64,000 nt of DNA from Myxococcus stipitatus (lineage in GTDB: Bacteria > Myxococcota > Myxococcia > Myxococcales > Myxococcaceae). This document shows positions 49,802 through 64,000 of the stretch, piece by piece. How positions within the stretch are numbered: the first letter of the stretch is position 1; every line of letters starts with the position of its first letter. Position numbers and translations under genes: made by a program. The DNA is taken from NCBI RefSeq assembly GCF_037414475.1, contig NZ_CP147913.1:1364001-1428000 (forward strand), in the 5' to 3' direction. The notes under the pieces are model-generated. The model saw only the letters and a list, made by a program, of their open reading frames with translations, did not search any database and had not been told where the DNA came from.

Positions 49802-49881
49802 CCCCCTGTGTCAGGGAAGATGTCGCCTCGGCGGAGATGCCGAGCTGACGACGCCTTGGGGGCGAGAGCAGGCAGGAAGCA

Positions 49882-50442
49882 GTGCCGTACACGGATGCAT
49901 TCAAAACGCAGATGGTGAAGCGGATGGTGGGCCCTGGCGCGGTGAGCGCTGCAGCACTGGCCCGGCAGGTGGGCGTCTCACAGCCGACGTTGTCGCAGTG
50001 GTTGCGCGAGGCGAATAGGGTAGCGGCCATGCCGCCCCCGCCCGAGGAGAAGAAGCCCGCTCTGCCCCCTGCGCCGAAGAAGTGGACGCCCCAGGAGAAG
50101 CTGCGGGTGCTGGCTGAGGCCCAGGAGCTTGCCGACGAGGAGCTGGGGGCGCTGCTGCGGCGCGAGGGACTGCACGAGGCGCAGCTGAAGGAGTGGCAGC
50201 AGGTCGCCGCAGGAGCCCTCTCGGGTGGCGCCGCAGAGCCGCTGCCCGCGAAGGAGCGCAAGCGGCTGGCCGCCGCCGAGAAGCGGGTGAAGGAGCTCGA
50301 GCGCGAGCTGCACCGCAAGGAGAAGGCGCTGGCCGAGACGGCCGCGCTGCTGGTGCTCGAAAAAAAACTTCAGGCGATGGGCTGGGACCAGCGGCACCTG
50401 GAAGACGAGGACGACTCCGGGGACGAGAAGAGCGAGAAGTGA
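49882..50442 (+). CDS. IS3-type transposase OrfA
   Basis: 186 residues from GTG at 49882 (GGAAG upstream). N-terminal HTH (FKTQMVKRMVGPGAVSAAAL, ARQVGVSQPTLSQWLREAN), a proline-rich linker, a second helical region, and a C-terminal leucine-zipper-like coiled coil (KRLAAAEKRVKELERELHRK). It binds the IS ends and regulates transposition. It overlaps orfB. Confidence 0.85.
   Translation: MPYTDAFKTQMVKRMVGPGAVSAAALARQVGVSQPTLSQWLREANRVAAMPPPPEEKKPALPPAPKKWTPQEKLRVLAEAQELADEELGALLRREGLHEAQLKEWQQVAAGALSGGAAEPLPAKERKRLAAAEKRVKELERELHRKEKALAETAALLVLEKKLQAMGWDQRHLEDEDDSGDEKSEK
50360..50367 (+). other. A8 slippery run for programmed -1 frameshift
   Basis: Eight A's (codons GAA AAA AAA C) occur in orfA where orfB is open in the -1 frame. 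Slippage on A_AAA_AAA would give an OrfAB fusion, the normal active transposase of IS3 elements. Confidence 0.6.
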
Positions 50443-51470
50443 CGCTCGCCCACGTCGGCGAAGCCCTGGAAAAGGGCGTGCGCCTGGAGGTCGTCTGCGA
50501 GCGGCTCGGGGTGGCCCCGCGCACCATTCAACGCTGGAGGAAGCCCGCCACGGCCGAGGACCGGCGGTGCGGTCCACGTACCCGGCCCGCCAACCGGTTG
50601 TCTGAGGTGGAGCGGCGCCGCATCCTGACGGTGGCTAACAGCGAGGAGTTCCGCGACGCCTCGCCCAAGCAGATTGTCCCCCGGCTGGCAGACCGGGGCG
50701 AGTACCTGGCCAGCGAGGCGAGCTTCTACCGCGTGCTGCGCCAGGAGGGGCAGTTGGCCCACCGGGGCCGTGCCAAGGCCCCCACGCCCAGGCCTCGGGC
50801 CGAGCACTCGGCTACCGGGCCCAATCAGGTATGGAGCTGGGACATCACCTACCTGAAGGGCCCGGTGAAGGGGGCCTTCCTCTACCTGTACCTGGTGGTG
50901 GACGTATTCAGTCGGCGCATCACGGGCTTCGAAGTCCACGAGGAGGAGTCGTCCGAGCATGCCGCGGCGCTCATCCGCCGCTGCTGGCAGCAGGCCGGCT
51001 GCCCCGAGGGGCTGGTGCTGCACTCGGACAACGGCGGACCCATGAAGGGCGCCACGTTGCTGGCCACCCTGCAGTGGCTCGGCGTCACGCCCTCCTTCAG
51101 CCGGCCCCGCGTCTCAGACGACAACGCCTTTTCCGAGGCCCTCTTCCGCACGCTGAAGTACCGCCCCAGCTTCCCGCAGCGCCCCTTCGCGTCCGTCGAG
51201 GATGCGCGCTCGTGGGTGACGCGCTTCGTGGCCTGGTACAACACCGAGCATCGGCACTCCGCCATCCGATTCGTCACCCCTGATGACAGGCACTTCGGCC
51301 GCGAACTGGCGCTGCTCGCCCGGCGCCAGCAGGTGTACCAGCGCGCCAAATCCCGTCATCCCGAACGCTGGAGCCGCGACACGCGTAACTGGACGCCGGT
51401 GGGCCCAGTCCGCCTTGGGCCCTCTCCCAACCTCACCCCGCTTCCGCAGGAGGTGCGGTCCGTCGGCTGA
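50439..51470 (+). CDS. IS3-type transposase OrfB (DDE integrase)
   Basis: About 343 residues from GTG at 50439, which overlaps the orfA stop (GTGA); the frame is open upstream, so it can also be made as an OrfAB fusion. HTH_21-like region (EVERRRILTVANSEEFRDAS), then the rve core: WSWDITYLKG (first Asp), LVLHSDNGGPM (second Asp), DNAFSEALFRTLKYRP (Glu), a D-D-35-E pattern. The catalytic triad is intact. Confidence 0.92.
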   Translation: MTLAHVGEALEKGVRLEVVCERLGVAPRTIQRWRKPATAEDRRCGPRTRPANRLSEVERRRILTVANSEEFRDASPKQIVPRLADRGEYLASEASFYRVLRQEGQLAHRGRAKAPTPRPRAEHSATGPNQVWSWDITYLKGPVKGAFLYLYLVVDVFSRRITGFEVHEEESSEHAAALIRRCWQQAGCPEGLVLHSDNGGPMKGATLLATLQWLGVTPSFSRPRVSDDNAFSEALFRTLKYRPSFPQRPFASVEDARSWVTRFVAWYNTEHRHSAIRFVTPDDRHFGRELALLARRQQVYQRAKSRHPERWSRDTRNWTPVGPVRLGPSPNLTPLPQEVRSVG

Positions 51471-51484
51471 ACCCTCTCACGCGA

Positions 51485-51491
51485 CATCTAC
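51485..51491. repeat. Right copy of the target-site duplication
   Basis: CATCTAC, matching 49795-49801. Deleting 49802-51491 restores the LysR frame exactly (VIY followed by LDAHRYTLGHF). Confidence 0.7.
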
Positions 51492-51857
51492 CTTGACGCT
51501 CACCGCTACACCCTGGGCCATTTCGTGCGGGAATGGCGCTTCAGCGGACAGCATGGCGACGAGCGCGTGCCCGTATCCGGCCGCTTGATGTCCAACAACG
51601 GCGCCATGCTGCGGACAGCGATACTGAAGGGCCTGGGCATCGGGCTCATGCCCTGGTTCATCGTGGGTGAGGATGTGAAAGCGGGGCACTTGGTCCCCCT
51701 GCTCACGGAATATGAGCCTCTTGAGGTGGGGATCTACGCGGTCTATCCGCAGAACCGACAGCCAGCCGCCAAGGTGCGCAGCTTCGTGGATTTCCTGGCC
51801 ACTCGCTTTCAACAAGAACCATCCTGGGAGCCCCGCGGCCCCCCCAAACGGCGCTGA
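51492..51857 (+). pseudogene. LysR-family regulator, 3' part
   Basis: 121 codons starting LDAHRYTLGHFVREWRFSG and continuing VPVSGRLMSNNGAMLRTAIL, GLGIGLMPWFIVGEDVKAGH and VYPQNRQPAAKVRSFVDFLA. This is the C-terminal half of the LysR substrate-binding domain, in frame with the 5' part once the IS and one repeat are removed. It has no start of its own. Confidence 0.9.
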
Positions 51858-54615: not shown

Positions 54616-54993
54616 ATCAGCACCTCCTCAAGCGCGACAGAAGAGGGTAGCGAGGGATTGGATGTCTGGGCTACGACCCCGGAGTGCCGGGCCCTTTCAG
54701 GCCCCACAGCGTCGGAGGATGGTTCGAACCCCTGTCCGTTTGAAATGGGGGCTACACCATCATCAGAAGCCACCGCCTCGCGGAGCGCCTCGAGAATCCG
54801 TCCATACAGGGCGAAGCTTTCGGTCTCGAAACAGTTCAATCCGCATCAAAGATTTCATGAACGTGGAGACCAAGAGAGCCGGGCGCAGGAATGCGCCCCC
54901 CGTCCACTGTAACGCCGGCACTGTATGTCCGTGGGGGCTCAACGCCTCACGTTGAGGCCCGCACCCCTCAATTTTCTCGCCAGACTTCAAACC

Positions 54994-55078
54994 GACAGGA
55001 CATGACGCGGGCAAGCCTTTTCTCGCGTCAAATTTCCTCTCGCCTTTTGCCTCGTTTCGGTTAACAAAACGTCCTGTC
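54994..55078 (+). repeat. Nested inverted repeats in a long leader region
   Basis: GACAGGAC (54994-55001) pairs with GTCCTGTC (55071-55078). Directly inside it TGACGCG (55003-55009) pairs with CGCGTCA (55024-55030). The region 54616-55173 has no credible gene (a weak minus-strand frame at 54606-54839 lacks a proper start). The repeats lie about 100 bp upstream of the next gene, so a structured leader or a pair of operators is possible. Confidence 0.4.
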
Positions 55079-55173
55079 ACTTCCTGCATATCTCCATTTG
55101 TAGCCAATACCCGGCTTTCGGGCTGTCGCTTTTGCCGAAGGCCGGCATCTCGACTCACATCGAAAGGGAGAGC

Positions 55174-56799
55174 ATGTCGTCACGTTCCATGCGGTGGATG
55201 GAGAGGGGCTGTTTGTCGGCCATTTCCCTGGCGGGATTGCTCGTCGTGCTGCCAGGAGAAGCCCAGGCCGCCTGTGGTTGCTCGGGCAATCCAGGGACCA
55301 TCACCTCGGATACCACTGGGCCCTGCCTGCGCGTCACAGCTCCCTCCGGAGCCGCCAACAGCATCACCTTCCGGTTCAACCAAGCCTATGCCTGTGGCCA
55401 ATACGTCACGGGGGAATATTTCGTCAGTCCTGCCACCGTGGGAGGGAAAGTCACCCTCACTGACATCACGCCCAAGGTCACCGGGCGTCACGGCGTGGAG
55501 GTCAATCCCTCGGGCCTCAACGAGGTCCCCTGGGACAAGCGTTTGAGCAGCACGGGGTACAAGACGCTCACGTTCCCCTATGCGGCGTCCGTCGGCAGCT
55601 CCGTCGTCAAGTACGTGTCCGACAATCCCTCGGGGGATTGTGACGCGGTGGGAGAGAAGTCCTGTGGCCGTTTTGCCGCCGCGCTCACGGTGGTGGCTGC
55701 CGCGCCAGCGAATCCGGCAAAGACTTTTCGTCCACCGTATGTGGGAACCTACAAGCCCACTTTCACCACAGACCAATTGCAGACCCAGTTCCTCTCGCGA
55801 ATTCCGCGCTCGCAGTTCACAGAGGTGGTCAACCGCACGGAGGCGGAGTCCTGGGTCCGGGGCCTGCGCCTGGATTACACGAACGACTCCGTGGTGTGCG
55901 ACCTCACGCCTCCAGAGGACAACATCCCCTATGGCCGTCCTTGGGCCACGGACATGTGGATGTACGACACGCATCTGTACGCCTGGCTCAACATGGGTGA
56001 TGTCTGTGATACCGCCCCCTGCTCCGCGGCACAGGACCTGGCCGCCAAGCAGAAGGTGCTCGTCGCGCTGGTGCAGCACGGCATCGACGTCTGGGCCAAC
56101 CACAAGATGGGCAGCAGCTTCTGGCGCGGCGGTGGTGGCAACGGTGGCGGCAAGCTCCTGAACTACGCCTTCGCGGCGGCCATGCTCCAGGCTCCGGAGA
56201 TGCTCGCGGACCTGGCCCAGGCCCAGGGACAGGAGTTCTTCGAGACGGGCAGCTATTACCGTGGCGTCAACGGCGTGGCCCTGTGGGGCCAGGAGGCGGG
56301 CTCCGAGGAAGAGTATTGGGCGGACCTGGCCCAGCCCCCGGGTTCGACCAAGACCATCCGTGACCCATATGGCCTCATCGACGGCGGGGGCGAGCTGGGA
56401 GGCGCATACCAGGACAACACGGCCAAGCCCACGCAGTACACGGGGCTGTTCATGCGCCTGATGCCCGCGCTCGCCCAGGCGTGGCCCGCGGTGAACCGCG
56501 ACACCATTCTCGAGTACACCGACCGTTGGGTGTACGTGGGCGCCTGGACGCAGCCGGACGTCTGCGCCCCAGTCACCACGTGGGACCGCTACGGCGTGGA
56601 CTTCGGGCCGGATGGTCAGGGGTCCTGCATCCGCGATACCCAGGCGCCGCTGGGTCGCGCCCCGGCGAGCCATGGCGCAAACCAGAACGGCGGGAACCGC
56701 ACGGAGATGGTTGGAGAGCAGATGTGGTCTTTGCTGCGCGGGTGCGTGGACACCTGCTCGTGCTCAGGCCAGAGCTGCGCGATGCCGCCCACGCCGTAG
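55174..56799 (+). CDS. Large exported protein of unknown family
   Basis: 541 residues from ATG at 55174 (AAAGGGAG upstream). A long signal ends LVVLPGEAQAACGC. Residues about 30-170 are beta-rich with several Cys; from about 190 the protein is mainly helical and aromatic: FLSRIPRSQFTEVVNRTEAE, YGRPWATDMWMYDTHLYAWL, QHGIDVWANHKMGSSFW, RGGGGNGGGK, and PTQYTGLFMRLMPALAQAWP. The WY-rich helical part recalls (alpha/alpha)6-barrel polysaccharide lyases or glycosidases, but I cannot assign it. Converges on a deacetylase gene. Confidence 0.75.
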   Translation: MSSRSMRWMERGCLSAISLAGLLVVLPGEAQAACGCSGNPGTITSDTTGPCLRVTAPSGAANSITFRFNQAYACGQYVTGEYFVSPATVGGKVTLTDITPKVTGRHGVEVNPSGLNEVPWDKRLSSTGYKTLTFPYAASVGSSVVKYVSDNPSGDCDAVGEKSCGRFAAALTVVAAAPANPAKTFRPPYVGTYKPTFTTDQLQTQFLSRIPRSQFTEVVNRTEAESWVRGLRLDYTNDSVVCDLTPPEDNIPYGRPWATDMWMYDTHLYAWLNMGDVCDTAPCSAAQDLAAKQKVLVALVQHGIDVWANHKMGSSFWRGGGGNGGGKLLNYAFAAAMLQAPEMLADLAQAQGQEFFETGSYYRGVNGVALWGQEAGSEEEYWADLAQPPGSTKTIRDPYGLIDGGGELGGAYQDNTAKPTQYTGLFMRLMPALAQAWPAVNRDTILEYTDRWVYVGAWTQPDVCAPVTTWDRYGVDFGPDGQGSCIRDTQAPLGRAPASHGANQNGGNRTEMVGEQMWSLLRGCVDTCSCSGQSCAMPPTP

Positions 56800-56822
56800 C
56801 TCGAGCCGCACATGAAATCCGT

Positions 56823-56847
56823 GCCCTCTCTCGCGAAGAGAGAGGGC
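56823..56847. terminator. Bidirectional terminator hairpin
   Basis: GCCCTCTCTC-GCGAA-GAGAGAGGGC: a perfect 10-bp stem with a 5-nt loop in the 64-bp gap between convergent stops. Confidence 0.75.
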
Positions 56848-56863
56848 ATCGTCATGTCCGGTG

Positions 56864-57748
56864 TCAGCGATTGAGGACGGTCTTGTTGTACCAGTCCGCA
56901 ATCTCTCCACCGGTGGTCATCCACACCTCCTTGCGCGACGTGATGTGGGCGAGCGCCTGGGCGAAGTACTTGCTGCGGTGCGGATGCCCAATCAGGAACG
57001 GATGCAGGGCGATGGCCATCACGCGGCCCGTCTTCGCGCCGTCCTCGTAGAGGGTGTCAAACTGGTCGATGATGGTCCTCGCGAAGCCTTCTGCGCTCTG
57101 CCCATGCACAAGGAAGGCGCCGAAGTCGTTGAGTTCGAGCGCGTACGGTACCGACAGCATCTGGCCCGTCTTCACTCGCATGGGGTAGGGCTGCTCGTCG
57201 TTCACCCAGTCCGCGACGTACTGGATGCCCGCCTCGGCCAGGTAATCCAGCGTGTGGAGCGACTCGCTGAGCGCGGGCCCGAGCCAACCCCGAGGCGCCT
57301 TGCCGGTGCTCCTCGTGATGGTCTCCACCACGGAGAAGATGTGCTGGCGCTCCTCCTCGGGTGAGTGCTGCGGGAGCAGCATGGAGTTGGTTTTTCCGTG
57401 GCCCATCCATTCCCAGCCCAGCTGGGTTCCCGCCTCGATGATGCGAGGGTAATGCTGGGTTGCGTCCGAGTTGAGCGCCACGGTGCCCTTCACGCCGTAC
57501 TTCTGCATCACCTCCATCAGGCGCCAGATGCCCACGCGGACGCCGTAATCCCGCCAAGCATAATTCAGCACGTCCGGCGCCAGGCTCGTGGTCGAAGGGA
57601 TGAGCGAACTGGACGGCCGGTCGAAATAGAAATGCTCGACGTTAGGGATAACCCAAACAGCCACACGGGCACCGTTGGGCAGATGCAAGGGCGGCCGGTC
57701 GACGATGGGGGAATACGGGAAACGGTCATGCTCCTGAGGAACAGTCAT
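56864..57748 (-). CDS. Polysaccharide deacetylase family protein, PuuE-like
   Basis: 294 residues from ATG at 57748 (a TTG start would add four residues). CE4-like NodB homology without the secretion signal. The pattern of purine-pathway/PuuE-type members is present: YGVRVGIWRLMEVMQKYGVK, GTVALNSDATQHYP, WEWMGHGKTNS, TLDYLAEAGIQYVADWVNDE and FLIGHPHRSKYFAQAL. Such enzymes hydrolyse ring amides (for example allantoin) or other N-acyl substrates; the exact substrate is uncertain. It stands alone. Confidence 0.85.
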   Translation of the reverse strand: MTVPQEHDRFPYSPIVDRPPLHLPNGARVAVWVIPNVEHFYFDRPSSSLIPSTTSLAPDVLNYAWRDYGVRVGIWRLMEVMQKYGVKGTVALNSDATQHYPRIIEAGTQLGWEWMGHGKTNSMLLPQHSPEEERQHIFSVVETITRSTGKAPRGWLGPALSESLHTLDYLAEAGIQYVADWVNDEQPYPMRVKTGQMLSVPYALELNDFGAFLVHGQSAEGFARTIIDQFDTLYEDGAKTGRVMAIALHPFLIGHPHRSKYFAQALAHITSRKEVWMTTGGEIADWYNKTVLNR

Positions 57749-58079
57749 GGCTTGCGACAAAGTCTGTCTCCCAATGAATGGCGAGGCGAACGGGCAGACC
57801 TCGCCCAGAGGGGCGTGGCGGTTCCGCTCACCAAGTTGGCAGAAAGATAAATCCCTCCGGTTTTTTGACTAGAAGGCCTTGATTCCGAAGTCTCCGGACA
57901 CAGATGTCCGCAATGGACTCGCGGCCAGACGGTGGCCCCCCCCCTGGAAGTCACTGCCATCTGGGATGATCGCCGCTACCTCGACATGGCCCTGCGGACC
58001 TCAAACCCAGACACCGATGGATGATACCGCCAAGGAGCCCTCCCCCCCCCGTCCCCTCCGAACCAACTACACACGATTC

Positions 58080-58193
58080 GGGACTTGCCCCTTCCTTCTG
58101 CCGCAGCCCACTCGTCTCGAATTCCTCCACCAACTTCGGCCACGCATGCGGATTGGGTCGTCGCAGGCCCCAGAATCCGCGAGGCGCGCTCAA
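58080..58193 (-). pseudogene. IS66 TnpA-like N-terminal fragment
   Basis: The minus frame reads SAPRGFWGLRRPNPHAWPKL and VEEFETSGLRQKE, like the start of IS66-type TnpA (W..LVEEFE.SGL.Q.EFA). It loses the match after QKE and is far too short. The region 57749-58079 holds no further gene; a 39-codon plus-strand frame ending near 58024 (EVTAIWDDRRYLDMALRTSN) may be another scrap. Confidence 0.35.
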
Positions 58194-58252
58194 CTCAGGG
58201 CGCCCGCTGTCCGTCGGTTACGGAGGGACCCACCGAGGGTGCATGCGGCCAA

Positions 58253-58287
58253 ACAAAAAGCCCAGCAACCTCGCGGCTGCTGGGCTT
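58253..58287 (-). terminator. Rho-independent terminator after the tmRNA-like 3' end
   Basis: On the minus strand AAGCCCAGCA pairs with TGCTGGGCTT around a GC-rich loop, then TTTTTGTTT. It follows the RNA-like fragment by 7 nt and would be the native terminator of that RNA gene. Confidence 0.75.
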
Positions 58288-58294
58288 CTCACTG

Positions 58295-58315
58295 TGGAGG
58301 CGGCGGGAATCGAAC
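58295..58315 (-). other. Attachment-site candidate: 3' end of tmRNA (or tRNA), 21 nt
   Basis: The minus strand reads GTTCGATTCCCGCCGCCTCC and a final A, the T-loop and 3' acceptor strand of a tRNA-like RNA. U at the position of U70 and the CGCCUCC arm fit tmRNA (ssrA), whose acceptor stem has a G-U pair. The 5' partner of the T-stem is wrong (GTGAG), and no anticodon or tmRNA body precedes it, so only the 3' tail is left. That is what a tyrosine integrase leaves at the far end of an island inserted into the RNA gene. Confidence 0.6.
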
Positions 58316-59227
58316 TCACAGGCAGGGCGATAGAAAACCTAGGCAGGACGCGCAGTTACCCCCTATCGCCTTGAATTTCCTCGGGTTCACAATCCCGCTC
58401 GTCCCACGACGGCCCCCCAGGTGCCTCCTCGAACCACGCTGGAGGGGCACACTGGGGGCACATGGAGCCCAACTTCGCCAAAGCCGAACGACCTAAGTCT
58501 CCAGGCGTCTCTGGCCCTGCGTAGCCCCCGTGAGAACTGACCAGCGGCAGTATGCGCCCGGTCGAGGACCTGCCGGGAACATTCAGGTGAGCGAGGACAA
58601 AAGGCATGCCCGTCGGAAGTGGCCGGAGGAGCCCCTGCGGTATGAGGCGGTGCAAGAGGCCGTCTCGCCATGTTGTTCGCGAAGGCGAGTGACGTAAGGC
58701 GCGACCCGCGTCTTCGTTCTAGGAGCGAGAGTGCGGCCACTCCAGATTCCCCAGGGATGTGCGGAAGAGGGAGAGAGTGGAGCCCAAGACATCGGCCAGG
58801 AACGAGATGACACCTCGAGTTGGCAGAGCGAAGCTGAGCAGGAGGACATGCGACTTCGACATACTCACATACCAAGGAGTGGAGACAATCATCAGGGACT
58901 GGTGTCCGTGATGGGTATGGAGGGATGCACGCGACTCTGTAGCCACCAAAGAGAGCCAAGGCCCCTCCCCGCGCACCTCTTTAGAGTGCGGCCAGGGTCG
59001 GCATGTACCCCTGGGGCTGCACCGTCGCTCACCGGACCAGCGTACTGCTCAGGCGGTCTCTTCCTGCGGCCCCTCGCACTGCCGCCACTCCAGCAGGCAC
59101 TCTCATAATGGCCTCTCTCCCACCAATACGTCAAACTGACTGAGATGGGATTCAGCACTCAACCTATGCTGGGGTTGCCGAGGCGGTAGACTTCACGCCA
59201 GCAGTGCCAACTCAAAGGACACATTCG
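58316..59227. other. Island edge without a recognisable gene
   Basis: 912 bases with no ORF I trust on either strand. GGCGATAG (58326-58333) and CTATCGCC (58363-58370) form an inverted repeat next to the attachment-site candidate, which could be recombinase or excisionase binding sites. A minus frame ending at 58356 (CEPEEIQGDRG) might be the tail of an old integrase, but I cannot support that. GC begins to fall here. Confidence 0.4.
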
Positions 59228-62200
59228 ATGACGGGACGCGTGGCGCGCGCAGGCTTCTATTTCTCCGACCTAGTGCTAATCGAGAGAGTACTTCGACACT
59301 TAGTCGATTGTCGGGCTGCTCAAATCGGGGGAGCGCCGCCACCTCCTGCACCACGTTTTCGTGTCGAAACGCATATCCAACATGAGTCTACACCCGAATG
59401 GGACCTTCTTGAGGAGCGGGCAGGTGAACGACCCGCCAAAGTACTAGAAGAAGTAAAGAGTGGACGGGTCGATGCAGATGACCGACGGGCACTATGGCAT
59501 CGTATTCGGCGCACCGTGGTCGCGCTGGATAGGTCCGGCATGTCCACAGTTATCCCTAGACTCACGGTGAATTCCGAGGACCCTCCAGACAACCCTGACA
59601 GGTGGAAGGACCTCTCTAACCTCGCTAAGACCGCATCAGCCAATGTTCGACCGCACCAGGTGAGATCCGCTGCAAACCTCGCCGAAGAAGCACTCTATTT
59701 CCTGACACATCCGCTCTCGGCAGACGGGGCGAAAACGAACATCTCAGAGCCTGTGCTTTCCAACACACGGGCACGCGAAATCCTATCCCTATTCGAATAC
59801 AATGACTCACCGAGCAAGCCCAGCCTCGAACAAAGCACAAAAAACCTAATCGAACTACTATCCCCAGAGCTCTCACTGGAGACACTGGGAGACACTCTGG
59901 TTGGAGAAGTTGTCCGGCGCGCCCAATCGCCCGATGCGACACTGCATACTTTTCTTCCTGGCGATCTCTGGGCGAACGTCAAGATACTGCAACGACTCAG
60001 CTCGGTTTCACCCGCCGCTGCCGGTTGCTGGCAGCAACTCGTGCGACTGGGGACAGAAGAAAATCTATCATATACATCAGAGAACAGCACTGCGCTAGCA
60101 TACCAAGACTGGCGCATGGTTCAGCCACAGATAGCGTCTAGTCTTCACGCGGCAAGTGCATCACGAGTGGCACTCACCGGGAGCGGAGGGCTCGGGAAAA
60201 GCGTTCTTCTTCTGGAGTTAGCCCGAGAAGCTCGCGAAAGAACCGCCAATCTCGTGCTCCAGTTTAGCGGAAGCGCACTGCGAGCACATGCGCAGGAGAG
60301 GCTGGGAGAGGGGCTTGAGTTGGGTCGTTTTCTGGCGTCTGCAAGGGGCCATGCGATTGAGATCTTCATCGACTCTTTTGAGGATATTGCCGATACGGTA
60401 GAGGAGAGGAGAAACTATCTTGCCGAGATTGGCAAAATCGCAGAGAAGGGGCGGGCCCGTGTCGTCCTTACCGCTCGCGCCACAACATGGAAGTCCGTCG
60501 CCGTTTCTCTGGGGCAAGTAGCAGGCTGGCAAGAAGCAGAACTTGCGGAGTGGAATGAGGCAATAGTCGAAAGGCTGGTTGGAGCGAGCCAGCGACCCCA
60601 ATTGCCATCCGACGTTCTTGGTCTGTTGCGCACTCCTCTGTTGCTAGACCTGTTCCTGCGGACGTTTGGCAACAACGACATCATTCCGGCAACACTCCAT
60701 ACACGCCATGCAATTCTAAGCGCCTTCTGGGCTCGACGGGTGTTGCCTCCTGACCAGCAAGAGTCGAGCGTGCGCAGAAGGGAGTTACTAAGATGCGCAC
60801 GCGAGGAAGCATCAGGAATACGCGAACATGCAGACCCCAACCAGATATTGCTTCGACTGGCCGGGGACGGAGTATTTCTGGTGCGGGGAGGCGTCTTTCT
60901 CTTTCGCCATCCACTCCTTCGTGACTTCGCTCTTGCACATTGGGCGATTGCGCCAGAAAGCGAAGCCGCCTCCCCAGCTCAAGCGCTTATGCAGATCCAG
61001 AGCGGACTGGCCCAATGGGGTGCGATGCGCGCTTTGATTGAGGCGGCATACGATGCCCTTGCTGAGAACCAAGCTGTTGCGACTGGATTTCCAAGTCCCA
61101 CAGAGTTGATCCGTAGCATTGATTCGCATGCCCCTAGCCTCCTTCCTATCCTCGCCGAGGTTTTAGGTGAATTGGGGGCTCCCAACAATGTGCGGACAGA
61201 AGTCATATTAGACTCCTTCGCATCCCCAGATGCTGCTTCGCGCTTTCTAGACCGGCTATTGAGCTTGGCGCAGCTCTCAACGAACGTATGCTGGTTGCGT
61301 TGGCTTTCCCAGTTGCCCGACAGCACTGCCTGGTTCGATGAGATTCCATGGGCTCGAACTGAGTTCGTTGTTAGAGCTGGATTGCTCCTTGATGCAACTT
61401 GGAAAGATACACCACAGAGGAACAGAGTCGACCTTTTCCCTGTCGCTCAGGCAGTAGCGCGGCGGATTCGCGAGTGGTCGATGGCCAGAACAGTTCAAGC
61501 CAATCCAGACGACCTAAACAACCGATTGCCCCTGCTTATGCCGTTGGTGGCGCGCCTCGCGCCTGGGACACGCACGCTAGAGTGGCTCGCATCCCACGCG
61601 ACGCGCTCTTCAAGCGGTCGCATGGCTGTTATGGAGTCATTGCCGAACCTGGCAAGCACGGCTCAAGAGCTAGGCCAGCATCTGGATGCAAACGATGTGG
61701 CAAAGTTATTTGTTTCTACTGGAGGACTCAAGTGGATGGACAACCTCTTGATCACAAATAGCGAGGCCCCAAACATCCCCATTGAAGAATACCTACGTAC
61801 AACCATTGCGCTCTTAGGTCAGCATTCCAACTCTACCCGTCCTCAAGGGCTGCTGGAACTGATGCCGGAGACCTTCTTACCTGTCGTATTTGGCTTTCTC
61901 GCCGGGCTTGGCTTTCAACGGCAAAAAACAGAGTGGCGGCAAAAAAACTCCAGTGAGGTAGTCGACTTCAAGAGAGACGGCGCAACACTCACAGCAGACA
62001 CCACAGAAGCTGGCCGCCTGGAGCAGGAGCTAAATGAGAATTCACCGCCAAACCTCTCCATCGAAGAAGTGATGGGCCAACTTGTCGACGACACATACGA
62101 CGGGAGTATCGAGGCTGGCGGCCACGAGCGAGCCCTACTGTTATCTACACTGAAAAGCCGTCTCCACGAAGCACTGTCGAATGGCGATGTGAAGTTTGCA

Positions 62201-64000
62201 CATCAGTTCTGGACATCAGCAAAAACTTCCCGCTCTGCATTTTCATGGATATTGCTACTTGAAAGCCTCGTTCAAGAACGCATCTGGGAGCCAACACTTG
62301 TCGATGAGTTGATCACGAAGAGGCCACTCTACCATCTATTTCCAGCACAGGAGATTCTTCACCGGGCAATCAGTTTGCGCTGGCAGTCCGCCCACATTGA
62401 AGTGCGCGAGGACATTCTCAAGCGAATCTCGGAGATAGCCAAATCCCCTCTACTAAATGGACTTTATGCCGTTGCGCCAATTCTCACGGCAATTCCGCAA
62501 GCATCTCAACCCGAGGCGCTTCGCGTTTACGACAAACTGTACCATCTGCGCGGATGGAATCCGCGGCCACAAAGAAAACAATCACACCATCCTGAATGGG
62601 GCCTTGACTCTTCGGATATTATTGGGCTTGGCAAAGCTTCATGTACCGAGAAGGAATGGGAGGACATTCTCTCGCGCTCCGCTCTCAGCAGTGTGCATGG
62701 GAGTGACGAAGCGGCATTCTCCCAATTTTTCGGCATTCTGCGACTGGCTATTTCACGGGGGCTCCCTTCTGCCGTCGAGACAAAGACGCATGTCGATATT
62801 CTATCGATACTTCGGAGCGTGTTCGAGCGTATCGAAAGTCGTCGAAATGTCTCGCACTCAAGAGTGGTCACGGATTCGAAAGTTGCCAGCGTGCTGGCAC
62901 CAACGGTGGATTTCGAACGCGAGGAAGTTGAGGCCATTGCAACCTGGGCGTTAGGGATTATGTGTTCGGTTGATGCTACGGCTCTCAATTCCGATCTAAA
63001 GCCTGTTCCAGTCGACGACACGCCAACAGCCACAACTCTTGAACCATGGAGGTCTGGATTATGGCTGATAGACGCAGCACTCGTTCATCCAGGGGCAATT
63101 GACAACTCTTGCTTGAGGGCTGCGCTTTTCGAAGAAGTACAACGGGTGACTGTTCAGCCATCCCCATCTGTTGCCTGGTACCTATTTTCAGCCTTGCGTC
63201 CATGGCACTGGCTTAGGCCTGACGACAGCAAGGCCTCCCTGGTCTGGGGGCTTTTGTCACAGAAGGTTACTGATCCCGGCGTTCTTCGTGTTGCGAGCAA
63301 GAATTTGATACCTCGCCTGTCTCCGGAACAGGGTGAGCAATTGGTGAGGCGGTGGCTGTCACTGGATAGAGATCCTGCCTCCCCCGACGCCGCAAAGTTT
63401 GTAGTGAGCCTCGGTGAGTTGATTGGAGCGTATTCTCTTCACCGCATCAATGGGGAACGCATGTTCTGGGCAGTTCTGCTTGAGGAGCTATTGGTCGCTT
63501 CACCTAGAACTGGAGTTCTTTCCGAACCCGAAACCTATGCTAAATATGTCTCGCAGTTGATGTTTGGCGCCAAGAGGTACTTCCTTGGGCAACCGCCTTC
63601 ATCAGCTCTTATTTCAGACTATGCGAATATGTTTGCAGCTTGTGCTCGCCAGTTCATGAAGGCTCTAGCCCGAGAACATATGGAGCACCTAATAATATGG
63701 GCCTTGGAGCCAGTGCTGCGCATGGCCAGTGAGGGGAAGAGTGAGTATCTGATGGAGTTCTGGAGTCAAATGAACCCAACCGTGTGCCGGATCATCCGGG
63801 ATGGACAATGGACAGACGCGCAATGGACAATCTTCAGGCTCCGCGACAGTCAACTGGCCGCCCGCTTGGGGGCTGACACCTTGATGGGAGTCGTGGAGGC
63901 CATTGCGGCCAAACATGTCGACCTGAGTACTCACTCAACTCATCTGCGCGAGAATGAAGAGATTGGACAGAGTTATCACTATGCAATGGAGTATGCTGTT
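59228..64000 (+). CDS. Giant STAND-type NTPase with N-terminal nuclease-like domain, 3' end outside window
   Basis: ATG at 59228 (AAAGGA upstream) opens 1591 codons to the window end without a stop. Residues 1-100: GFYFSDLVLIERVLRHLVD, then PEWDLLEERAGERPAKVLEE and VKSGRVD; Asp59 and Glu75-Val-Lys77 fit a PD-(D/E)xK nuclease core of the Mrr/Cap4 kind. At 318-325 is the P-loop GSGGLGKS in VALTGSGGLGKSVLLLELAR; a Walker B candidate, AIEIFIDSFEDI, is near 377, and RARVVLTARATTWKS (a NACHT/STAND-like sensor) near 405. From about 600 the protein is a long string of helices. GC is about 50-55%, far below its neighbours. The order nuclease-STAND-helical sensor is that of Avs anti-phage proteins; no named family is assigned. 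Confidence 0.85.
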   Translation, partial: MTGRVARAGFYFSDLVLIERVLRHLVDCRAAQIGGAPPPPAPRFRVETHIQHESTPEWDLLEERAGERPAKVLEEVKSGRVDADDRRALWHRIRRTVVALDRSGMSTVIPRLTVNSEDPPDNPDRWKDLSNLAKTASANVRPHQVRSAANLAEEALYFLTHPLSADGAKTNISEPVLSNTRAREILSLFEYNDSPSKPSLEQSTKNLIELLSPELSLETLGDTLVGEVVRRAQSPDATLHTFLPGDLWANVKILQRLSSVSPAAAGCWQQLVRLGTEENLSYTSENSTALAYQDWRMVQPQIASSLHAASASRVALTGSGGLGKSVLLLELAREARERTANLVLQFSGSALRAHAQERLGEGLELGRFLASARGHAIEIFIDSFEDIADTVEERRNYLAEIGKIAEKGRARVVLTARATTWKSVAVSLGQVAGWQEAELAEWNEAIVERLVGASQRPQLPSDVLGLLRTPLLLDLFLRTFGNNDIIPATLHTRHAILSAFWARRVLPPDQQESSVRRRELLRCAREEASGIREHADPNQILLRLAGDGVFLVRGGVFLFRHPLLRDFALAHWAIAPESEAASPAQALMQIQSGLAQWGAMRALIEAAYDALAENQAVATGFPSPTELIRSIDSHAPSLLPILAEVLGELGAPNNVRTEVILDSFASPDAASRFLDRLLSLAQLSTNVCWLRWLSQLPDSTAWFDEIPWARTEFVVRAGLLLDATWKDTPQRNRVDLFPVAQAVARRIREWSMARTVQANPDDLNNRLPLLMPLVARLAPGTRTLEWLASHATRSSSGRMAVMESLPNLASTAQELGQHLDANDVAKLFVSTGGLKWMDNLLITNSEAPNIPIEEYLRTTIALLGQHSNSTRPQGLLELMPETFLPVVFGFLAGLGFQRQKTEWRQKNSSEVVDFKRDGATLTADTTEAGRLEQELNENSPPNLSIEEVMGQLVDDTYDGSIEAGGHERALLLSTLKSRLHEALSNGDVKFAHQFWTSAKTSRSAFSWILLLESLVQERIWEPTLVDELITKRPLYHLFPAQEILHRAISLRWQSAHIEVREDILKRISEIAKSPLLNGLYAVAPILTAIPQASQPEALRVYDKLYHLRGWNPRPQRKQSHHPEWGLDSSDIIGLGKASCTEKEWEDILSRSALSSVHGSDEAAFSQFFGILRLAISRGLPSAVETKTHVDILSILRSVFERIESRRNVSHSRVVTDSKVASVLAPTVDFEREEVEAIATWALGIMCSVDATALNSDLKPVPVDDTPTATTLEPWRSGLWLIDAALVHPGAIDNSCLRAALFEEVQRVTVQPSPSVAWYLFSALRPWHWLRPDDSKASLVWGLLSQKVTDPGVLRVASKNLIPRLSPEQGEQLVRRWLSLDRDPASPDAAKFVVSLGELIGAYSLHRINGERMFWAVLLEELLVASPRTGVLSEPETYAKYVSQLMFGAKRYFLGQPPSSALISDYANMFAACARQFMKALAREHMEHLIIWALEPVLRMASEGKSEYLMEFWSQMNPTVCRIIRDGQWTDAQWTIFRLRDSQLAARLGADTLMGVVEAIAAKHVDLSTHSTHLRENEEIGQSYHYAMEYAV

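What the first reader, a model, noticed from the sequence alone, without database searches (positions are those of the whole stretch)
58253..58400. Genomic-island boundary in a tmRNA-like 3' end
Seen: a 21-nt fragment with T-loop and acceptor arm followed by a Rho-independent terminator; the T-stem is broken and nothing 5' of it resembles an RNA gene; GC falls from about two thirds to about one half to the right. Known: tyrosine integrases insert into ssrA and tRNA 3' ends, leaving a repaired gene at one end and a tail fragment at the other. Inferred: the island starts here and extends right, past the window, where the intact RNA gene and the integrase should be.
Basis: partly seen in the sequence, partly recalled or inferred. 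Interest (0 to 1): 0.75.

Follow-up and report, generated by a model that had tools for sequence, protein, structure and literature searches.

The report
Mobile island docked in tmRNA gene
A 20-kb mobile DNA island has inserted into the end of a Myxococcus-group bacterium's tmRNA gene and repaired the gene as it entered; the insertion trick is well known, but the element family seems undescribed and in several relatives carries different immune-type genes next to one end.

Summary
Confirmed. The 21 nt at 58295-58315 (minus strand) exactly copy the 3' end of the genome's intact tmRNA gene, 20,085 bp to the right. A 407-aa tyrosine integrase and an excisionase-like gene lie directly beside that intact gene. 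Joining the two flanks in silico regenerates a complete tmRNA gene. The motif ATGTGCCC-N3-GTGTGCCC occurs exactly twice in the 10.3-Mb chromosome, just inside each island end, as expected of integrase arm sites. Two relatives share the left flank (94%); both carry other islands starting within 4 nt of the same base. The GC drop is one cargo gene (59204-64138, 54% GC), not the whole island.

Next to the distal arm, 5 of 9 ssrA-type ends read carry a low-GC STAND- or Shedu-type, defence-like gene; of 19 arm-bearing distal ends of all targets read, these same 5 do. The insertion is textbook; the possible defence slot is a lead.

The parts
58295..58315 (-). attL core: displaced 3' end of ssrA (T-loop to A73), exact 21-nt repeat of the intact gene's end at G000:C1:1442380-1442400
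   Evidence: two perfect copies in the genome; joining the flanks restores a complete tmRNA
58251..58287 (-). Displaced native ssrA terminator (hairpin 58258-58287 plus A/U run)
   Evidence: read directly; its 60-nt flank matches the ssrA 3' flank of G017 at 55/60, against 46/62 for the flank beside the intact gene
58316..58463 (-). Island end, inner attachment arm (P'-like); right edge of chromosome-derived DNA is 58315
   Evidence: aligned with three arms of G024, 84% mean column identity including the core
58445..58463 (-). Arm motif ATGTGCCC-N3-GTGTGCCC, candidate integrase arm sites; partner at G000:C1:1442301-1442319
   Evidence: only two sites in the genome, no reversed-control site; fixed distance from the core. 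Binding is inferred
58326..58370 (.). Inverted repeat GGCGATAG / CTATCGCC (58326-58333 and 58363-58370) beside the core; role unknown
   Evidence: read directly; kept in two of three G024 arms, changed in the third
59204..64000 (+). Cargo gene, 1644 aa, STAND-like NTPase (ends at 64138 in window frame, beyond the window); 54.4% GC; candidate defence gene
   Evidence: nSTAND_NTPase5 24.3 bits, below its cut-off of 34; Avs4 17.4 bits; P-loop at residue 326, GC
56864..57760 (-). Polysaccharide-deacetylase gene in the native flank left of the island
   Evidence: Pfam; 97% and 95% identical in G008 and G019

Best explanation
A 20-kb integrative genomic island occupies the 3' end of ssrA (tmRNA gene, minus strand). 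Its tyrosine integrase recombined an attP site, which carries a copy of the ssrA 3' end plus a terminator, with the chromosomal ssrA 3' end (attB). The chromosome's own 3' end and terminator were pushed to the far side (58251-58315), and the island's copy completed the gene at its right end. Shown: both repeats, the intact gene, the adjacent integrase and excisionase-like gene, the paired arm motifs at both inner ends, in-silico regeneration of ssrA, and other islands at the same site in two relatives. Inferred: that this integrase did it, that the arm motifs bind it, that the Prim-Pol/helicase protein replicates the excised circle, and that the STAND-like cargo is an anti-phage gene.
For: Exact 21-nt repeat, two copies in 10.3 Mb, 20,085 bp apart. 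Complete tmRNA at 1442379-1442742 (Rfam 176 bits). Integrase 1441088-1442311 with PF00589 at 114.6 bits and excisionase-family HTH protein (TIGR01764, 41.0 bits over cut-off 28.8). Arm motif exactly twice in the genome, at both inner ends; 42 sites in 19 of 27 genomes and 0 for the reversed pattern. Left-flank identity with G008 and G019 stops at 58319 and 58315. Displaced flank resembles ssrA flanks without an intact family integrase (G017, G005, G006, G003); the flank beside the intact gene resembles family-occupied ssrA (G024, G013, G015).
Against: No clean empty site with the same left flank was found. G007's flank does not separate the two origins (54/62 and 53/62), and the G008 and G019 flanks fit neither well. 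Excision, circle and integrase activity are untested. The GC drop covers one gene only.
Confidence: 0.96

Rival explanations
1. Composite: the left fragment was left by an older, different ssrA island and the present integrase element joined or replaced it, so the 20 kb is not one mobile unit.
For: Tandem arrays at ssrA exist in relatives (G008, G024), and remnants of family integrases occur.
Against: The left inner end carries the same arm motif as the integrase side, and these are the only two in the genome; its arm resembles those of elements in G024 whose ssrA-side integrase is 85% identical. No third core copy lies between them.
Confidence: 0.05
2. A prophage or phage satellite rather than a stand-alone integrative element.
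For: Integrase, excisionase-like gene and a primase/helicase with PHROG matches resemble satellite cores.
Against: Of 8 island proteins scanned against PHROGs, none matched a structural or packaging family. Small ORFs were not all scanned.
Confidence: 0.2
3. A chance or decayed ssrA fragment without an island.
For: The T-stem is broken and nothing 5' of it is tmRNA.
Against: Intact copy, adjacent integrase, paired arm motifs, flank comparison.
Confidence: 0.005

Closest known systems
Genomic islands in tRNA/tmRNA genes (Islander, PMC4383910; abstract, passages and section 5 seen)
   Same: Regenerated target gene, displaced 3' fragment, integrase between them; that paper states tmRNA is the most enriched target and counts tandem arrays.
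   Different: Nothing in principle; the element family itself was not found described in my searches.
P4-like satellites with a defence hotspot (PMC9122126, passages seen; tmRNA hotspot of E. coli in PMC10121019, passages seen)
   Same: Integrase, primase/helicase core, integration in tRNA/tmRNA genes, variable defence genes at a fixed place.
   Different: No PHROG structural or packaging match in 8 proteins; backbone has DUF2381 and two Ser/Thr kinases; cargo lies at the end far from the integrase.
Cch replicative helicases of staphylococcal cassette chromosomes
   Same: The 931-aa protein has an HTH_56 (Cch) domain and a match to NCBIfam SCCmet_Cch1.
   Different: That NCBIfam match (35.9 bits) is far below its cut-off (700); here a Prim-Pol domain is fused in front and the recombinase is a tyrosine integrase (that SCC uses serine recombinases is recalled).
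Avs/STAND anti-phage receptors
   Same: Large protein with a P-loop and a weak nSTAND/Avs4 match.
   Different: Matches are below curated cut-offs and no effector domain was recognised in the G000 protein.

Membership tests
tDNA-integrated genomic island | Intact tRNA/tmRNA gene at one end | tested here: met
   Complete tmRNA 1442379-1442742
tDNA-integrated genomic island | Displaced 3' fragment of the same gene in the same orientation at the other end | tested here: met
   Exact 21-nt copy, same strand, 20,085 bp away
tDNA-integrated genomic island | Integrase gene between the two ends | tested here: met
   PF00589 integrase beside ssrA
tDNA-integrated genomic island | Absent from some relatives at the same site (empty site) | tested here: inconclusive
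   Both relatives with the same flank carry other islands there
tDNA-integrated genomic island | Excision and integration by the encoded integrase | not testable with these tools
   Needs reads or an assay
Phage satellite (P4-like, PICI) | Capsid-remodelling, packaging or helper-hijacking genes | tested here: not met
   No such PHROG match in 8 proteins scanned; small ORFs not all scanned
Integrative conjugative element | Conjugation genes | tested here: not met
   No conjugation family among the island ORFs scanned with Pfam; small ORFs not all scanned
Avs/STAND defence protein (1644-aa cargo) | STAND NTPase domain at curated cut-off | tested here: inconclusive
   24.3 bits against a cut-off of 34; P-loop present
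Avs/STAND defence protein (1644-aa cargo) | Protects against phage | not testable with these tools
   Needs an assay

The most novel reading that the evidence does not exclude
The island belongs to an undescribed family of self-replicating myxobacterial integrative elements that dock at ssrA and several tRNA genes, keep the same integrase arm sites while switching target, and at ssrA carry, beside the distal attachment arm, an interchangeable immune system (giant STAND receptors with different N-terminal effectors, or ATPase plus Shedu). The ssrA locus would then be an exchange port for immune genes in predatory social bacteria.
Probability: 0.35. Interest if true: 0.58.

Novelty: new member of a known kind. 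Interest (0 to 1): 0.4.

Why it matters
It gives exact ends, a candidate attP and arm sites for a mobile element family in Myxococcus-group bacteria. One 19-bp pattern finds ends of such elements across the genus, and some of those ends border unfamiliar large immune-type genes, so it is a place to look for new anti-phage receptors. The integrase tree, with repeated changes between ssrA and tRNA genes under conserved arm sites, makes the question of how integrases change target testable within one family.

Tried and rejected
Empty site: 2 of 26 relatives (G008, G019) keep the left-flank gene at high identity; both are occupied. G017 has a native-like flank after ssrA but a second core copy (2 mismatches) 2.3 kb on, and the alignment to the window's flank goes no further left than 58209 there, so it is not a clean empty site.

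Rfam matches of short stretches as positions '1-374' suggested that element ends might mimic a whole tRNA-like domain. Reading them showed the ssrA 3' core behind element arm sequence; dropped, except that ARAGORN calls a tRNA-Ala over one of them (L094).

Defence slot as a general rule: weakened by my own check. After reading 7 arm-bearing distal ends with an ssrA core (5 with defence-like genes), I fetched 11 further arm-bearing sites: 2 have an ssrA core (G011, G016), and neither shows a low-GC giant gene; the other 9 have other or no recognised cores. Together with G003 C113 (backbone only) that is 19 ends, 5 positive. Of the first 7, the two other negative ends (G024 at 2461893 and 5056505) were scanned with PADLOC, 5 ORFs each: one Cas3-HD-like ORF about 1.9 kb from the core and one weak JetC match, not counted.

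The large cargo protein has no significant match among solved structures (best E 0.23); no structure prediction was run. Rows dropped: one search used 17 of 19 distal core copies known then (the two in L094 left out). One search used 25 full-length integrases with fetched neighbourhoods, not all hits. The integrase scan used a profile of this family and distant relatives, so other integrase types may be missed.

Full report
Place. The window is G000:C1:1364001-1428000 of a one-contig genome of 10,311,252 bp, unnamed. Named holders of close relatives of its integrase are Myxococcus, Pyxidicoccus, Corallococcus, Archangium and Hyalangium. The genus search covered 27 genomes, itself included.

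Observation. The fragment is real and lies on the minus strand. ARAGORN and Rfam (gathering score) find no RNA gene in the window. A 181-bp query finds one other place, 20 kb to the right. There ARAGORN finds a complete tmRNA gene with tag ANDNVELALAA, scored 176 bits by Rfam.

Island anatomy (genome coordinates; ORFs). From right to left: intact ssrA 1442379-1442742 (-); integrase 1441088-1442311 (+), PF00589; 82-aa excisionase-family HTH protein 1440843-1441091 (+); 931-aa Prim-Pol/DUF927/HTH_56 protein 1438051-1440846 (+); DUF2381 protein 1435936-1436931 (-); Ser/Thr kinases 1434092-1435924 and 1432623-1433912 (-); an ORF without family match 1431152-1432546 (-); a 567-aa ORF 1429627-1431330 (-), part of which matches DUF2380; small ORFs; and the 1644-aa STAND-like gene 1423204-1428138 (+), window 59204-64138. 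The GC drop is that gene: 54.4%, against 65.7% for 1429084-1442311.

Attachment sites. Inside each end lies ATGTGCCC-N3-GTGTGCCC: 1422445-1422463 and 1442301-1442319, and nowhere else in the genome. In the 27 genomes there are 42 sites in 19 genomes, and none for the reversed pattern. The two repeats start 59 and 70 nt beyond the core at 6 of 26 ssrA genes (63 and 74 at a seventh), and 148-151 and 137-140 nt before the core at 7 of 17 distal core copies. That is what arm-type integrase sites on both sides of attP should look like; binding is inferred. The left arm aligns with three arms of G024 at 84% mean column identity, core included.

Which end is whose. The 60-nt flank of the displaced fragment matches the ssrA flank of G017 at 55/60, against 46/62 for the flank beside the intact gene; G005, G006 and G003 lean the same way. 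The flank beside the intact gene matches family-occupied ssrA genes instead (G024, G013 54/60; G015 53/60). G007 does not separate the two, and the flanks of G008 and G019, which hold other islands, fit neither well. So the chromosome's own terminator was displaced and the element brought a new one. Joining the flanks in silico gives a complete tmRNA.

Relatives. The left flank (54762-58093) is 94% identical in G008 and G019; matching through the fragment ends at 58319 and 58315, and different DNA follows. Core copies in G019 lie 13.3 kb apart; G008 has cores 35 and 79 kb from ssrA, and G024 20 and 84 kb from ssrA: tandem arrays. An integrase-like ORF directly follows ssrA in 10 of 26 genomes with an intact ssrA (G000 included): 6 full-length members of this family, 2 remnants, 2 of a more distant type; 16 of 26 show none in the stretch read (up to 16 kb, less at contig ends). 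Integrase, HTH protein, DUF2381 and kinases are shared with G019, G013, G024 and G015; the Prim-Pol fusion was found only in G015 among the stretches compared. G019 has other ORFs there, one with DUF5906.

Targets. Of 25 family integrases with neighbourhoods, 10 lie beside ssrA or an ssrA fragment, 11 beside a tRNA gene (Glu, Val, Asp, and Leu of three anticodons), and 4 beside no RNA gene found. On the tree the ssrA label needs 5 changes, at least 4 forced by well-supported branches; shuffled labels need 8.0 on average, and 12 of 500 shuffles are as low. So targets were switched repeatedly, and labels are also clustered.

Cargo. Next to the arm-bearing distal core: G000, 1644-aa STAND-like; G024, 1742 aa, PNP_UDP_1 N-terminus (54.9 bits) plus AAA/STAND; G012, 1740 aa, 72% identical to that; G013, 2001 aa, endonuclease-type effector match plus AAA_16 and Avs1b-like matches; G015, an ATPase (HEC-04 match) beside a Shedu SduA protein. 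The four giant genes have 54-58% GC. G000 and G024 proteins align significantly only over the NTPase region (26% of 220 aa). That is 5 of the 9 arm-bearing distal ends with an ssrA core that I read. Against it: two G024 ends, G011 and G016 lack such a gene; a further 9 arm-bearing sites and G003 C113, at other targets, show none, so 5 of 19 in all; and G019's ssrA element has no large gene there. The ends without family scans were judged by GC, length and comparison only. In G012, G013 and G015 the two element ends lie on different contigs, so their link to the ssrA-side integrase is inferred; in G000 and G024 it is shown. The 1644-aa protein matches 2 of 145 genomes of the order, itself included. 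'Defence gene' for G000 is a reading, not a result.

Known or new. The insertion principle is described in PMC4383910 (abstract, passages, section 5). Defence hotspots in P4-like satellites are in PMC9122126, and the E. coli tmRNA hotspot in PMC10121019 (passages). Searches of an open-access library listed no paper that I recognised as describing this element family; that is not proof of absence.

Verdict. It is a clean new example of a known kind; the added interest is the family, its arm sites, its target switching and a possible defence slot at ssrA.

Noticed in passing
window 57942-58222: Two adjacent stretches (57942-58091 and 58092-58222) left of the fragment recur at many places in other genomes of the genus (74-92% identity): dispersed repeats of unknown kind.
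   Followed up: no
window 49802-51506: A 1.7-kb stretch is found in several copies at 82-91% identity in several relatives, likely a mobile or repeated element.
   Followed up: no
L092 (G024:C1, cores at 5056505 and 5059958); L096 and L097 (G026:C11, cores at 144670 and 122314): Perfect ssrA 3'-end cores far from the intact ssrA gene of those genomes, with a family integrase or a piece of one beside one core of each pair: moved or secondary insertions.
   Followed up: partly
L243, L244, L251 (G010, G019), near the arm sites: Arms of some family members lead into a shared non-RNA sequence containing GGTGACGCTCA instead of a tRNA end; it may be a protein-gene target for the integrases with no RNA gene beside them.
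   Followed up: no
L094:1250-1326 (G004:C709): ARAGORN calls a tRNA-Ala(TGC) that ends in the 21-nt ssrA core: perhaps a chance tRNA-like fold formed by an element arm and the core.
   Followed up: no
L135:7338-7985 (G024:C1 about 2459338-2459985): Cas3-HD-like ORF about 1.9 kb inside an older tandem ssrA element end.
   Followed up: no
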